Source: Pseudomonas saponiphila (GTDB taxonomy: Bacteria > Pseudomonadota > Gammaproteobacteria > Pseudomonadales > Pseudomonadaceae). From it: 64,000 nt of DNA. The notes under the pieces are model-generated. The model was not told where the DNA came from. It searched no databases and worked only from the letters and a program-made list of their open reading frames with translations. The first letter of the stretch is position 1. Every line of letters starts with the position of its first letter. Shown here one piece after another: positions 12,978 to 17,704 of this stretch. The DNA is taken from positions 4,298,501 through 4,362,500 of the forward strand of contig NZ_FNTJ01000001.1 in NCBI RefSeq assembly GCF_900105185.1, written 5' to 3'. The position numbers and the translations under genes were made by a program.

Positions 12978-13793
12978 TTGATTGGTAGTCACACGCTGAG
13001 TCGCTTCATGTTCAGGCCCTGGCGCCATCGAGAACTGCTGTTGACCCTGATCGAGCGTGAAGTCGCAGGCCGCTATCGCGGCTCGATCGTCGGCATCCTG
13101 TGGTCCTTCCTCAATCCCTTGCTGATGTTGCTGGTCTACACCTTCGTTTTCAGCGTGCTGTTCAAGGTGCGCTGGGAATCCGCCAGCGATTCGAAACCCC
13201 AGTTCGCCCTGCTGGTGTTTACCGGCATGCTGGTCTTCAACCTGTTTTCCGAATGCCTGGTCCAAGCTCCGGGGCTGATCCTGAACCACGCCAATTACGT
13301 GAAGAAGGTGGTGTTTCCCCTGCAGATCCTGCCCTGCGTGATGCTCGGAGCAGCGCTGTTCCAGACCCTGGTGGGTTTTATTGTCTGGCTGGTCTTTCAC
13401 CTGCTGGTCTTCGGCCTGCCGCCACTCACCACCCTGCTGTTTCCTCTGGTCCTGCTGCCGCTGGTGTTGTTTACCCTGGGATTGTCATGGCTGCTGTCGG
13501 CCCTCGGGGTCTACCTGCGGGATATCGGTCAAGTCATCGGCGTACTGATGTCGGCCCTGATGCTCCTGTCCGGGGTCTTCTACCCGGTGAATGCCCTGCC
13601 GGCCATCTACCAGCACTGGCTCTACATGAACCCGCTGACCCTGGTGATCGAGTCCTCCCGCGACGTTCTGATCTGGGGGGTGGTGCCCGATTTCGGCCCA
13701 TGGCTGGGGCAACTGACGGTGGCTGGCATCGTGGCTGTTCTAGGTCGAGCGTGGTTCGAGAAGAGCCGCCAAGGGTTTGCCGATGTGCTCTGA
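12978..13793 (+). CDS. wzm: Polysaccharide ABC exporter, permease subunit (Wzm type)
   Basis: A 271-residue inner-membrane permease of the ABC-2 type that exports finished O-antigen or related polysaccharide from the cytoplasm. The N-terminus ELLLTLIEREVAGRYRGSIVGILWSFLNPLLMLLVYTFVFS is diagnostic. Six hydrophobic segments follow, and the C-terminal NPLTLVIESSRDVLIWG is the family end motif. The start appears to be TTG at 12978, with AAGGAG five bases upstream; no better ATG is available. It overlaps the start of wzt by 11 bases, so the two subunits are translationally coupled. It is the first gene of the glycan operon. With wzt interrupted just downstream, this permease probably lacks its ATPase. 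Confidence 0.92.
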   Translation: MIGSHTLSRFMFRPWRHRELLLTLIEREVAGRYRGSIVGILWSFLNPLLMLLVYTFVFSVLFKVRWESASDSKPQFALLVFTGMLVFNLFSECLVQAPGLILNHANYVKKVVFPLQILPCVMLGAALFQTLVGFIVWLVFHLLVFGLPPLTTLLFPLVLLPLVLFTLGLSWLLSALGVYLRDIGQVIGVLMSALMLLSGVFYPVNALPAIYQHWLYMNPLTLVIESSRDVLIWGVVPDFGPWLGQLTVAGIVAVLGRAWFEKSRQGFADVL

Positions 13794-13917
13794 GCTGGCG
13801 ATCAGGACTCAGGGCCTGGGCAAGTGCTATCAGATCTACGACCAGCCACGAGATCGCTTGCTGCAATTGTTCCGGCCTCGCAGCAAACAGCGCTATCGCG
13901 AGTTCTGGGCATTAAAG
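13783..13917 (+). pseudogene. wzt: wzt, 5' fragment (codons 1-45) cut off by the IS21-family insertion
   Basis: This is the first 45 codons of the Wzt ATPase, reading MCSELAIRTQGLGKCYQIYD up to FWALK. It includes the strand with the A-loop aromatic residue (KCYQIY) that normally stacks on the ATP adenine. Reading resumes exactly in frame after the insertion at 16565 (DVSLEI). Restoring the two parts gives a normal 424-residue Wzt. After codon 45 the frame runs into the insertion sequence and soon stops. The ATG overlaps the wzm stop, as expected for this pair. Confidence 0.9.
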
Positions 13918-14010
13918 TGCGGATTTCGGTGAACGTGACCGAGCGTTTCGCTAATACGTGACCGGTGCTTCCACCCCGGTTGCGCGGGTTCTGGATTGTA
14001 ATCGCATCGG

Positions 14011-14760
14011 TCACGATGCGGCTTGTTCCTCGGCTTTTTTTCGGCGCAGCGACTCGCCTTTCATCGTCAGTCGGTAGGCGTTGTGCACCAGGCGGTCGAG
14101 GATGGCATCGGCCAGGGTCGGGTCGTTGATCCAGCCGTGCCAGTGCTCGATGGGCAGTTGGCTCGTCAGGATGGTGGAGCGGCTGCCAGCGCGGTCGTCG
14201 ATCACCTCCAGCAGGTCATGCCGGGCTCCTTCCTCCAGCGGGGCTAGCGCCCAGTCGTCCAGCACCAGGACGTCGACCTTTGCCAGCTGTTGCAGGGTAC
14301 GGCCGAAGCTGCCGTCGCCATGAGCGATGCGCAGTTGTTCCAGCAGGCGCGGGGTGCGCAGGTACAGGGTGCTATAGCCCTGGCGGCAGGCCTGGTTGCC
14401 CAGGGCGCAGGCCAGCCAGGTTTTGCCGGCACCGGTCGGGCCGGTCAGCAGCAGGTTGTGCTGCTGGCGGATCCAGTCGCCACTGGCCAGGGTGGCGATC
14501 AGACGCTCGTCCAGGGCGCGTCCGGTGCGGCGGTCGAGATCTTCCAGGCAGGCGTTGGCGTACTTGAGCTTGGCCTTCTTGCGCAGCCGTACCAGGCGCT
14601 GGTTGTCACGCCAGGCCAGTTCGCGGTCGAGCAGTAGGCCGAGGCGTTCATCGAAGCTCAGGCTGTGGCTGGCCGGCAGCGTCCATTGCTCTTCCAGGGC
14701 GCGGGCCATGCCGTCCAGGCGTAGCTGGTGCAGTTGATTCAGGGTGTGTTGCGGCATCAT
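14011..14760 (-). CDS. istB: IS21-family helper ATPase IstB, copy 1
   Basis: A 249-residue AAA+ ATPase that assembles with IstA and directs target choice and strand transfer. Walker A is GPTGAGKT and Walker B is VLVLDDW. The N-terminus QHTLNQLHQLRLDGMARALEEQW is typical of IstB. The start is the ATG at 14758-14760, with AGGAG seven bases upstream. Longer in-frame starts belong to the overlapping istA region. The gene overlaps the 3' end of istA by 113 bases, longer than the few bases usual in this family. It looks intact, so the element may still be mobile. Confidence 0.93.
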   Translation of the reverse strand: MMPQHTLNQLHQLRLDGMARALEEQWTLPASHSLSFDERLGLLLDRELAWRDNQRLVRLRKKAKLKYANACLEDLDRRTGRALDERLIATLASGDWIRQQHNLLLTGPTGAGKTWLACALGNQACRQGYSTLYLRTPRLLEQLRIAHGDGSFGRTLQQLAKVDVLVLDDWALAPLEEGARHDLLEVIDDRAGSRSTILTSQLPIEHWHGWINDPTLADAILDRLVHNAYRLTMKGESLRRKKAEEQAAS

Positions 14761-16333: not shown

Positions 16334-16403
16334 CTTCCTCTCCCGAAATCGGTCGAGGATGGCGGCGCATCAGGTCATGCGCAACGAAGGGGAAGGCTTT
16401 CGC

Positions 16404-16558
16404 TAAGTCGTGACCGGCGATTTCGGTAAGCCGTGACCACCTGTTTCGGAACAGGCGGAAAATCGGTCACGTTGCTACCGAAATGAGCGGTCACGCGTTA
16501 GCGAAATGACCGGTCACGATCAACCGAAACGGCCGGTCACGGTGCTCCGAAATCCGCA
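16404..16558 (-). repeat. Subterminal repeat array of IS21 copy 1 (istA end)
   Basis: Alternating copies of a GTGACCG/CGGTCAC unit and a TTTCGG or TTTCGC unit occur at roughly 20-50-base spacing between the istA start and the element tip. A smaller set lies inside the other end (13918-13970). Such multiple repeats are the expected IstA-binding sites of the family. Confidence 0.6.
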
Positions 16559-16564
16559 TTAAAG

Positions 16565-17704
16565 GACGTGTCGCTGGAGATTCGCAAAGGCGAGGCCCTG
16601 GGCATCATCGGGCGCAACGGCAGTGGCAAATCGACCTTGTTGCAACTGATTTGCGGCACCCTTGGCGCCACCACCGGCACCCTGTCGAGCCACGGCCGTA
16701 TCGCCGCCCTGCTGGAGCTGGGTTCAGGCTTCAATCCGGAGTTCAGCGGCCGCGAGAACGTCTACCTCAATGGCGCGGTACTGGGCCTGAAACGCGCGGA
16801 AATCGACGCACGCTTCGACGAAATCACCGCCTTTGCCGGAATCGGCGAGTTCATCGACCGGCCCACCAAGACCTATTCCAGCGGCATGCTGGTGCGCCTG
16901 GCGTTCGCTGTCTCGGTGTGCGTGGAACCGGACATCCTGATTGTCGATGAGGCCCTGGCCGTGGGCGACGCCTCGTTCCAGTTCAAATGCCTGGAACGAC
17001 TTGACCGCCTGACTCGGCAAGGCATGACGCTGCTGTTCGTGTCCCATGACATGAGCATGGTCAAGCGCTTCTGCACCCGCGTCCTGTACCTGCGCGACGG
17101 TGAAGTCCGCGCCAGCGGAGCGCCGGAAACCATCGCTGAACTCTATTTGCTGGACATGCGCGACGAGCAGCGCCGCCGGGCCAGCACCGGGGCGATCCGG
17201 GTCCACGCCAAGACCCCGCTCAACCCGGAACGCGGCGTGGCCTTCGGCACTGCAGAAGGGCAGATCACCTCAGCGGTATTCAGCAGCACCGGGACGTTGT
17301 ATTCGAGCTTCGTCCATGGCGACGTGATTGAAATCGCCATCGACACTCTGGTCAGCGACAGCGTCACCCGCCCCAACATCAGCCTGACCATTCAGGAAGC
17401 CCGGCTGCTGGTGGTCAGCGGGGTCAATACCCCCCTGCACAGCGATGCATCCGAGGCTGGTTGGCGACACGCCTCGATCCGCTTGCGCTTCGCCGCCAAC
17501 CTCGCGCCCGGGCGCTATCACATCACGCTAAAGCTGATGGATGGCGAGACCGAGGAGACCTCCCAACTGATTGAAAAACAGGTGGCCCTATTGGCCTTCG
17601 ACACCTTGCCGGGCAACAAGCATTTTTTGGGGATCGTCGACATGCACATCGAAGACGTCACGGCGAAGCGGCAAACGACCCCGCTGACCGAGGAACGCTC
17701 ATGA
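16565..17704 (+). pseudogene. wzt: wzt, 3' fragment: ATPase core and glycan-binding domain, separated from its start
   Basis: These are the remaining 379 codons of the Wzt ATPase subunit. Walker A is GRNGSGKST, the signature is YSSGMLVRLAF, and Walker B is ILIVDEALAVGD. The switch His is in FVSHD. After about residue 250 of the restored protein comes the C-terminal immunoglobulin-like domain that recognises the polysaccharide end. A GTG at 16568 could start a shorter protein, but its ribosome site is too close, and the product would lack the A-loop strand. Loss of function is therefore likely, though not proven. The fragment still overlaps the next gene by four bases (ATGA). Confidence 0.88.

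What the first reader, a model, noticed from the sequence alone, without database searches (positions are those of the whole stretch)
13783..17704. The Wzt exporter ATPase gene is split by a recent IS21-family insertion
Reading frame, family sequence and the 6-bp direct repeat TTAAAG show that a normal 424-codon wzt was cut after codon 45. The severed 3' part keeps Walker A, signature and Walker B but loses the A-loop strand and its ribosome site. An exported polysaccharide (O-antigen type) is therefore probably missing or reduced. Because the element reads against the operon, five downstream genes may be affected too. The rest of the operon shows no decay, so the event looks recent.
Basis: partly seen in the sequence, partly recalled or inferred. 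Interest (0 to 1): 0.75.

Follow-up and report, generated by a model that had tools for sequence, protein, structure and literature searches.

The report
Jumping-gene burst breaks sugar exporter gene
In this Pseudomonas genome a gene predicted to encode the motor of a surface-sugar exporter is split by one of 102 near-identical copies of a single mobile element that the nearest relative examined lacks, which is likely the mark of a recent copying burst that would have disabled the exporter and probably many other genes.

Summary
Confirmed: wzt is cut after codon 45 by a 2,641-bp IS21-family element (13918-16558) with TTAAAG on both sides. Relative G082 and P. protegens FD6 carry the gene uninterrupted. 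G082 has none; of 397 other Pseudomonas genomes sampled, 5 show one left end each. Insertion sites lie in coding frames as often as nearby control positions (56/95 against 56-59 of 94-95). Best reading: a recent transposition burst of an IS1474-type element, with wzt one of many casualties. Loss of export through this Wzm-Wzt pair is likely but inferred. A second intact wzm-wzt pair exists, and two conserved P. protegens O-polysaccharide clusters show no LPS phenotype when deleted, so the effect may be silent. The kind of event is known (ISS12 in P. putida S12). Unusual: four resident copies encode the same IstA/IstB but lack one 23-bp right-end repeat, a natural test of end structure.

The parts
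12978..13793 (+). wzm, predicted membrane partner of the exporter, intact
   Evidence: ABC2_membrane PF01061 104.9 bits; 93% aa to G082, 82% to FD6
13783..13917 (+). wzt 5' piece, codons 1-45; the frame continues CGFR and stops at 13930-13932 inside the element
   Evidence: sequence; translation; 97.8% aa to G082
13912..13917 (+). target duplication TTAAAG, left copy
13918..16558 (-). IS21-family (IS1474-type) insertion sequence, 2,641 bp, one of 98 identical copies
   Evidence: 99.6% to an element annotated IS1474 family on a Pseudomonas plasmid
14011..14760 (-). istB, helper ATPase, 249 aa
   Evidence: NF038214 271.4 bits, PF01695; start placed as in a RefSeq-annotated copy
14648..16333 (-). 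istA, transposase, 561 aa
   Evidence: NF033546 301.7 bits, PF22483
16398..16558 (.). right-end repeat array (about 23-bp units with CGGTCACG or its complement); positions 2562-2584 of the element are the unit missing in the 2,618-bp copies
13918..13966 (.). left-end repeats
16559..16564 (+). target duplication TTAAAG, right copy
16565..17704 (+). wzt 3' piece, codons 46-424 and stop: Walker A, signature, Walker B (motifs seen by eye, names recalled) and Wzt C-terminal domain; lacks residues 1-45
   Evidence: PF00005 and PF14524 (scanned from 16568); 95.3% aa to G082
16568..17704 (+). possible restart ORF from GTG (378 aa); AAGGA 1 nt upstream of the GTG
17701..19077 (+). polysaccharide pyruvyl transferase-like gene, overlaps the wzt stop
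   Evidence: PF04230 90 bits
19074..19775 (+). 233-aa gene (called 2OG in my scripts, label recalled, not scanned)
   Evidence: ORF; conserved in G082 and FD6
19826..21910 (+). glycosyltransferase, 694 aa
   Evidence: PF00535, PF13692
21865..23010 (+). glycosyltransferase-like, 381 aa (label recalled, not scanned)
   Evidence: ORF; conserved in G082 and FD6
22994..23899 (+). glycosyltransferase-like, 301 aa (label recalled, not scanned)
   Evidence: ORF; conserved in G082 and FD6
55895..58535 (+). second identical copy of the element in the window, opposite orientation, istA on + at 56120-57805; 7-bp duplication GGCATGG in element orientation

Best explanation
The wzt gene is split after codon 45 by one of 102 full-length copies of an IS1474-type IS21 element in this genome, 98 of them identical, which most likely spread in a recent transposition burst and would have ended ATP-driven export through this predicted Wzm-Wzt pair. 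Shown: the cut, the target duplication, the copy number and identity, uninterrupted genes in relatives, and no copy in G082, the nearest relative found by its wzm. Inferred: IstA and the helper ATPase IstB pasted new copies at nearly random sites, faster than selection could remove them. The 45 lost residues include the first strand and A-loop region of the ATPase domain (recalled anatomy), so neither the 49-residue stub nor a restarted 3' product is expected to power export. Glycan made by the cluster would then stay inside, or not be made. The effect on the surface may be small if other O-polysaccharide systems dominate.
For: Cut and duplication. Copy number: 104 left ends and 105 right ends, whole-genome counts; the listings stop at 100. 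The fetched stretches (and the window) hold 104 full copies: 98 are exactly 2,641 bp with 0 mismatches, 4 are 2,618 bp, and 2 (L045, L136) are contig-end artefacts, so 102 remain, 3.65% of the genome. 95 of the 102 have a 5-7 bp duplication. Relatives: 29 of 30 loci from other genomes have the two wzt pieces back to back with 0-3 bases between the matches (29 of the 30 come from the best hits, where 86 of 298 genomes matched, plus FD6; one, L162, showed no match). The left end (up to 3 mismatches) is absent in 392 of 398 genomes; own genome 104, five others one each. In one search none of 56 other genomes had a match above 73% identity over 150 bases or more (only the best 5 candidates per genome were scored). 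No relaxed evolution of the 3' piece. Sites are as coding as displaced controls: 56/95 against 59/95, 57/95, 56/94, 59/94 (Fisher P 0.73). Precedent: ISS12 in P. putida S12 (PMC5658596).
Against: Loss of function was not measured. The 3' ORF keeps its catalytic motifs and has a GTG with a badly spaced AAGGA. A second open wzm-wzt pair might supply an ATPase domain in trans. Perfect identity of the copies could be partly an assembly or polishing effect, although four variant copies were kept distinct. The coding-frame classifier is crude: it did not itself score the wzt site as in-frame on both sides, because the 5' piece is short. Seven of 102 copies lack an exact duplication (L006 differs by one base), so not every copy is a simple fresh insertion. 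The age cannot be dated with one genome of the species.
Confidence: 0.87

Rival explanations
1. Selected loss: the insertion rose because losing this glycan helped the cell, for example against a phage or tailocin that uses it as receptor, rather than by hitch-hiking in a neutral burst.
For: In P. protegens CHA0, loss of the OBC3 long O-polysaccharide gives resistance to a phage (PMC10715155, passages), and mutations in the OBC3 cluster became dominant in root-evolved lines (PMC8262913, passages).
Against: The site is one of about a hundred, spread without preference for or against coding sequence. The OBC3 cluster of CHA0 is another locus by its position, and OBC1 and OBC2 deletions changed neither the LPS profile nor tailocin sensitivity in Pf-5 (PMC9213528, passages). 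The window holds only one copy in this cluster.
Confidence: 0.12
2. Functional restart: translation from the GTG at 16568, or help from the second Wzt, still gives export, so the insertion is nearly neutral.
For: 378-aa ORF with ABC_tran and Wzt_C. AAGGA upstream of the GTG. Second Wzt 57% identical to the FD6 protein over residues 1-241. No relaxed evolution of the 3' piece, though the insertion may be too young to tell.
Against: The restart lacks residues 1-46, and the FD6 homologue aligns with the solved Wzt chain 8dku_A from residue 12 on, so conserved sequence is lost. The GTG spacing is 1 nt. No promoter-like site was found in 13700-16700, and the 2 terminator-like sites do not exceed shuffles (mean 1.6); these scans are weak evidence either way.
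Confidence: 0.1
3. Assembly artefact: a repeat collapse or wrong path put the element into wzt.
For: The assembly does have two false copies at contig ends: C1 end overlaps C2 end and L135; C4 start overlaps C4 end and a C3 locus.
Against: The wzt copy lies about 333 kb from the end of a 4.65-Mb contig, has a perfect 6-bp duplication that a mis-join would not create, and both flanks belong to one gene that is contiguous in G082.
Confidence: 0.02
4. Old, stable expansion: the copies were gained over a long time and kept identical by gene conversion.
For: Five of the 98 identical copies lack exact duplications, and the genome has a 1.95-kb partial copy (L047).
Against: 93 of 98 identical copies keep exact duplications outside the element, which gene conversion within the element would not maintain; these are few bases, so this is limited evidence. 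G082 has no left end. The broken wzt shows no decay.
Confidence: 0.06

Closest known systems
ISS12 (ISPpu7, IS21 family) expansion in Pseudomonas putida S12/A (PMC5658596; passages and sections 10 and 13 read)
   Same: IS21-family element of about 2.6 kb with transposase and AAA helper and 6-8 bp repeats in the table rows seen; 33 copies of three variants, 28 of one variant identical, 23 copies unique to that stock; knocked out a transport gene (srpA)
   Different: Another element (its identity to this one was not measured); here 102 copies, 98 identical, in another species group; the broken gene is a polysaccharide exporter ATPase; neither the time of the burst nor reversion is known here
IS1474-type elements on Pseudomonas plasmids (NY11382, P. 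kurunegalensis)
   Same: Same length, 99.3-99.6% identical, same gene layout
   Different: 1-8 matching places per plasmid record; two right-end bases differ, and 8 or 16 other bases; no plasmid record matches the 225-base right end at 100% (best 99.1%)
IS insertions in wzm/wzt of Klebsiella pneumoniae O-loci (PMC7556023, passages)
   Same: Insertion sequences interrupt wzm or wzt of ABC-exported O-antigens; those authors say this may abolish the O-antigen
   Different: Other elements (such as ISKpn26, IS5), other genus, one or a few insertions per locus
High-copy insertion sequences in P. syringae pv. actinidiae (PMC6053426, passages): ISPsy31 (IS3) with up to 88 copies, ISPsy41 (IS21) with up to 26
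   Same: Many copies of one element in a Pseudomonas genome
   Different: The IS21 elements in the table part seen reach 26 copies at most; plant pathogen lineage
Outlier genomes for IS families (PMC4072520, passages and section 10 read)
   Same: Recent expansion of one family; IS21 outliers in Yersinia pestis are listed
   Different: No Pseudomonas is listed in that table

Membership tests
IS21 family insertion sequence | istA transposase and istB helper ATPase in one unit | tested here: met
   NF033546 301.7/160 bits, NF038214 271.4/200 bits
IS21 family insertion sequence | TG...CA ends with several repeated end sites (L1/L2, R1/R2) | tested here: met
   ends and repeats; the family description from PMC10122671 passages; TG...CA rule partly recalled
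IS21 family insertion sequence | short target duplication (4-8 bp; range recalled) | tested here: met
   95 of 102 copies with 5-7 bp (48 of 6, 39 of 7, 8 of 5)
IS21 family insertion sequence | catalytic DDE residues in IstA | not tested
   not aligned residue by residue; rve PF00665 29 bits is below its cut-off of 32.6
Wzt (ABC exporter ATPase of O-polysaccharide type) | ABC_tran domain and Wzt C-terminal domain | tested here: met
   PF00005 78.6 bits, PF14524 45.5 bits in the 3' piece; the FD6 homologue matches solved Wzt-type chains, best 8dku_A (E 5e-71)
Wzt (ABC exporter ATPase of O-polysaccharide type) | adjacent Wzm membrane partner | tested here: met
   ABC2_membrane 104.9 bits, 12978-13793
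Wzt (ABC exporter ATPase of O-polysaccharide type) | one continuous reading frame of about 424 codons | tested here: not met
   split 45 + 379 by the element; so a broken wzt gene, not a working Wzt
Wzt (ABC exporter ATPase of O-polysaccharide type) | exports a glycan | not testable with these tools
   needs an LPS or glycan assay
Recent transposition burst | many near-identical copies with intact duplications, absent in near relatives | tested here: met
   no sibling isolates of the species could be compared
Reversible (precise-excision) insertion as for ISS12 | clean loss of the element at low rate | not testable with these tools
   no population data

The most novel reading that the evidence does not exclude
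The right-end repeat array of the element set off the burst. Two forms live in this genome and encode identical IstA and IstB. The form with the full right-end array (and the sequence ACCGGTCACG in its second repeat) has 98 copies; the form lacking one 23-bp repeat has 4. If the two forms really shared the same transposase and time, then end structure in cis, not the transposase, decided which one flooded the genome: a natural experiment on how IS21 copy number escapes control.
Probability: 0.15. Interest if true: 0.65.

Novelty: new member of a known kind. Interest (0 to 1): 0.42.

Why it matters
The split wzt by itself is ordinary. The setting is less so: a large, otherwise complete Pseudomonas genome apparently caught soon after about a hundred copies of one IS21 element landed in it, with no detectable bias away from coding sequence. 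That gives a near-unfiltered map of IS21 target choice. It also warns that gene content read from such a genome may not match what the strain can make. The two element forms with the same proteins and different ends make the role of the end repeats directly testable.

Tried and rejected
Rejected: the idea that the two right-end bases that set the 98-copy form apart (positions 2543 and 2593) are new activating mutations. Against NY11382, P. kurunegalensis and the 2,618-bp copies they looked derived, and G291 agrees with those. But more distant elements (RW109, 19SMN4, PA83, G084) carry the same bases as the 98-copy form, so they are probably ancestral; only the difference in the repeat array remains.

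Tried without result: mapping three duplication-less chromosomal copies (L002, L091, L132) on G082 to find deletions. For L002 and L091 only one flank has a clear counterpart there, for L132 neither, so it is inconclusive. Searching the IS1474 name in papers gave 4 papers, none opened. The promoter and terminator scans and the fold at the right junction (z 0.93) show nothing beyond shuffles. Assigning the locus to a P. protegens OBC cluster failed: the passages seen do not give gene contents. The C3 contig was not identified: from the one 10.5-kb stretch tested only an IS4 element matched in the plasmid collection. Orientation bias of the copies was counted but not tested.

Not in print, as far as searched: searches listed no paper on this element at about 100 copies or on this wzt insertion; the library holds only open-licence papers, and mostly listings were seen.
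Full report
OBSERVATION. The window lies at C1:4298501-4362500 of a 7,375,852-base genome in four contigs (contig lengths). The 5' frame reads four more codons into the element and stops at 13930-13932. The element has istA and istB, both above the NCBIfam cut-offs for the IS21 family. Its ends are TGCGGATTTCGG and CCGAAATCCGCA, and it has repeated sites inside both ends.

RELATIVES. FD6 (Pseudomonas protegens, L039) has a 424-codon wzt with the two parts adjoining; the pieces match at 82% and 85%. I gave 36 loci: 30 from other genomes (FD6 and 29 of the best loci) and 6 from this genome. 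Of the 30, 29 hold both pieces with 0-3 bases between the matches and one (L162) shows neither. Most of these are distant: in 25 of the 29 the N piece is 48-64% identical. Between the window and G082 the 3' piece differs at 18 nonsynonymous and 30 synonymous codons; six other genes of the cluster (wzm and the five downstream) together differ at 143 and 263 (Fisher P 0.75). There are no stops or gaps. So the 3' piece has not decayed.

ONE OF 102. A left-end pattern has 104 places and a right-end pattern 105 in the genome (up to 3 mismatches; the listings stop at 100 places but the counts are whole). The fetched stretches hold 104 full copies and one 1.95-kb partial copy with only the right end (L047), which agrees with both counts. 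Two full copies sit at contig ends and share flanks with other places: L045 with a C3 locus and with the far end of C4, L136 with the ends of C2 and with L135; I count them as assembly artefacts. Of the remaining 102, 98 are 2,641 bp with no mismatch to the window copy and 4 are 2,618 bp. Together they hold 269,290 bases, 3.65% of the genome. Duplications: 48 of 6 bp, 39 of 7, 8 of 5, and none exact in 7 (L002, L006, L054, L091, L132 and two of the 2,618-bp copies); L006 has one base different in a 6-bp repeat. Per contig: C1 54, C2 32, C3 14, C4 2. C3 has more than its share (14 against 5.5 expected, P 0.001; for the 98 identical copies alone 11, P 0.017).

SPREAD IN THE GENUS. In 398 Pseudomonas genomes the left end (up to 3 mismatches) occurs in 6: this one with 104 and five with one each. 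Draft assemblies can collapse repeats, so single places in drafts are lower bounds. G082 has none. In the plasmid collection the nearest elements (99.6% and 99.3%) lie on large Pseudomonas plasmids; that collection holds no chromosomes. Two of the five other genomes were aligned: G291 is 98.8% and G084 92.1% identical. C4 is a relative of MobF/T4SS Pseudomonas plasmids (98% of a 10.8-kb stretch at 95%), which suggests, without proving it, that the element came in by plasmid.

HOW RANDOM. I scored whether the best coding frame is the same on both sides of each of the 95 sites with duplications, flanks kept apart. It is at 56 of 95; at positions 500 or 700 bp away in the same flanks it is at 57/95, 59/95, 56/94 and 59/94 (pooled Fisher P 0.73). 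The test is crude and missed wzt itself, but it should miss alike in the controls. By another measure 44 of the 95 sites have at least 60 open codons on both sides. I scanned 40 of these 44 by the longer single-side piece: 32 had a Pfam family at E 1e-5 (for example acyl-CoA dehydrogenase, a HBM-HAMP sensor, histidine kinase, OprD, TonB receptor, PQQ dehydrogenase, GGDEF/EAL, sulfate permease, phage genes) and 8 had none; I recognised no classical essential gene among them (recalled judgement). The target shows only a weak preference around the duplication, for instance C in 51 of 95 at the first base after it.

WHAT BREAKS. Residues 1-45 are lost from the 3' product. The FD6 protein aligns to the solved Wzt-type chain 8dku_A from residue 12 on, through this part. 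That the A-loop lies there is recalled knowledge of ABC ATPases. A restart at GTG 16568 would keep the catalytic motifs but not this part. No sigma-70-like promoter was found in 13700-16700, and its two terminator-like sites do not exceed shuffles. In ISS12 the downstream promoter was weak and the upstream one inactive under the conditions tested (PMC5658596, section 10), so help from the element for downstream genes is uncertain.

REDUNDANCY. A second pair, wzm at C1:564548-565339 and wzt from C1:565332 (55% identical to this wzm; 57% to the FD6 Wzt over residues 1-241), is open and is followed by methyltransferase-like and glycosyltransferase-like ORFs (labels of those ORFs recalled). P. protegens strains carry several O-polysaccharide clusters, and deletion of OBC1 or OBC2 changed nothing on LPS gels (PMC9213528 and PMC10715155, passages). 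Loss of this exporter may therefore not show on a gel. Against that, a gene named wzt is listed among those important for swimming in Pf-5 (PMC11004494, passage); the passage does not say which locus.

TWO FORMS. The four 2,618-bp copies lack 23 bp of the right-end array (positions 2562-2584) and differ from the 98-copy form at 2 (L055) or 3 other bases; IstA and IstB are identical in both. Three of the four are on C3, and two of the four lack duplications (against 5 of 98; Fisher P 0.02), so they may be older. The two right-end bases that set the 98-copy form apart from close relatives are also found in more distant elements, so I dropped the idea of new activating mutations. What is left is a difference in the right-end array with the same proteins. 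No plasmid record matches the 98-copy right end exactly (best 99.1%).

PRECEDENT. In P. putida S12/A, ISS12 (IS21 family) reached 33 copies in three variants, 28 of one variant, 23 of them unique to that stock; it broke srpA and was cleanly lost in about 1 in 10 million cells plated under toluene (PMC5658596; passages, sections 10 and 13 read). P. syringae pv. actinidiae has up to 88 copies of an IS3 element and 26 of an IS21 element (PMC6053426, passages). Yersinia pestis is listed as an IS21 outlier (PMC4072520, section 10). The kind of event is known; the copy number of this element here is higher than the numbers seen in the first two reports (the third passage gives none).

VERDICT. Observation confirmed. 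Interpretation right in its core, too narrow in scope, and untested in its phenotype.

Noticed in passing
window 55895-58535: A second identical copy of the element with 7-bp duplication GGCATGG (element orientation), between lexA/sulA-like genes and the end of a LemA-like ORF (58551-59108); it appears intergenic (gene labels recalled).
   Followed up: partly
L136 (C1:4638190-4643229), L045 (C4:1-20000): False copies at contig ends: C1 end overlaps C2 end and repeats the flank of L135; C4 start overlaps C4 end (3.9 kb, 99.8%) and a C3 locus.
   Followed up: yes
L047 (C1:811000-817000): A 1.95-kb partial copy with the right end only; no left part was found in the fetched stretch.
   Followed up: no
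C4 (L045, L046, L137): 59.5-kb contig related to MobF/T4SS plasmids of many Pseudomonas, some clinical (95% over 98% of 10.8 kb); two copies of the element on it.
   Followed up: partly
C3 (397,710 bases): Carries 14 copies against 5.5 expected and three of the four 2,618-bp variants; perhaps a megaplasmid and the entry route; only an IS4-type element matched the plasmid collection in the one stretch tested.
   Followed up: partly
CP065422.1 (Priestia aryabhattai record, hits H15, H43): A Gram-positive plasmid record holds parts of this Pseudomonas element at 99% identity near its two ends; contamination or mis-assembly is likely.
   Followed up: no
L174:3454-4551: A transposase-like ORF (IS630-like by recall) upstream of the second wzm-wzt cluster.
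   Followed up: no
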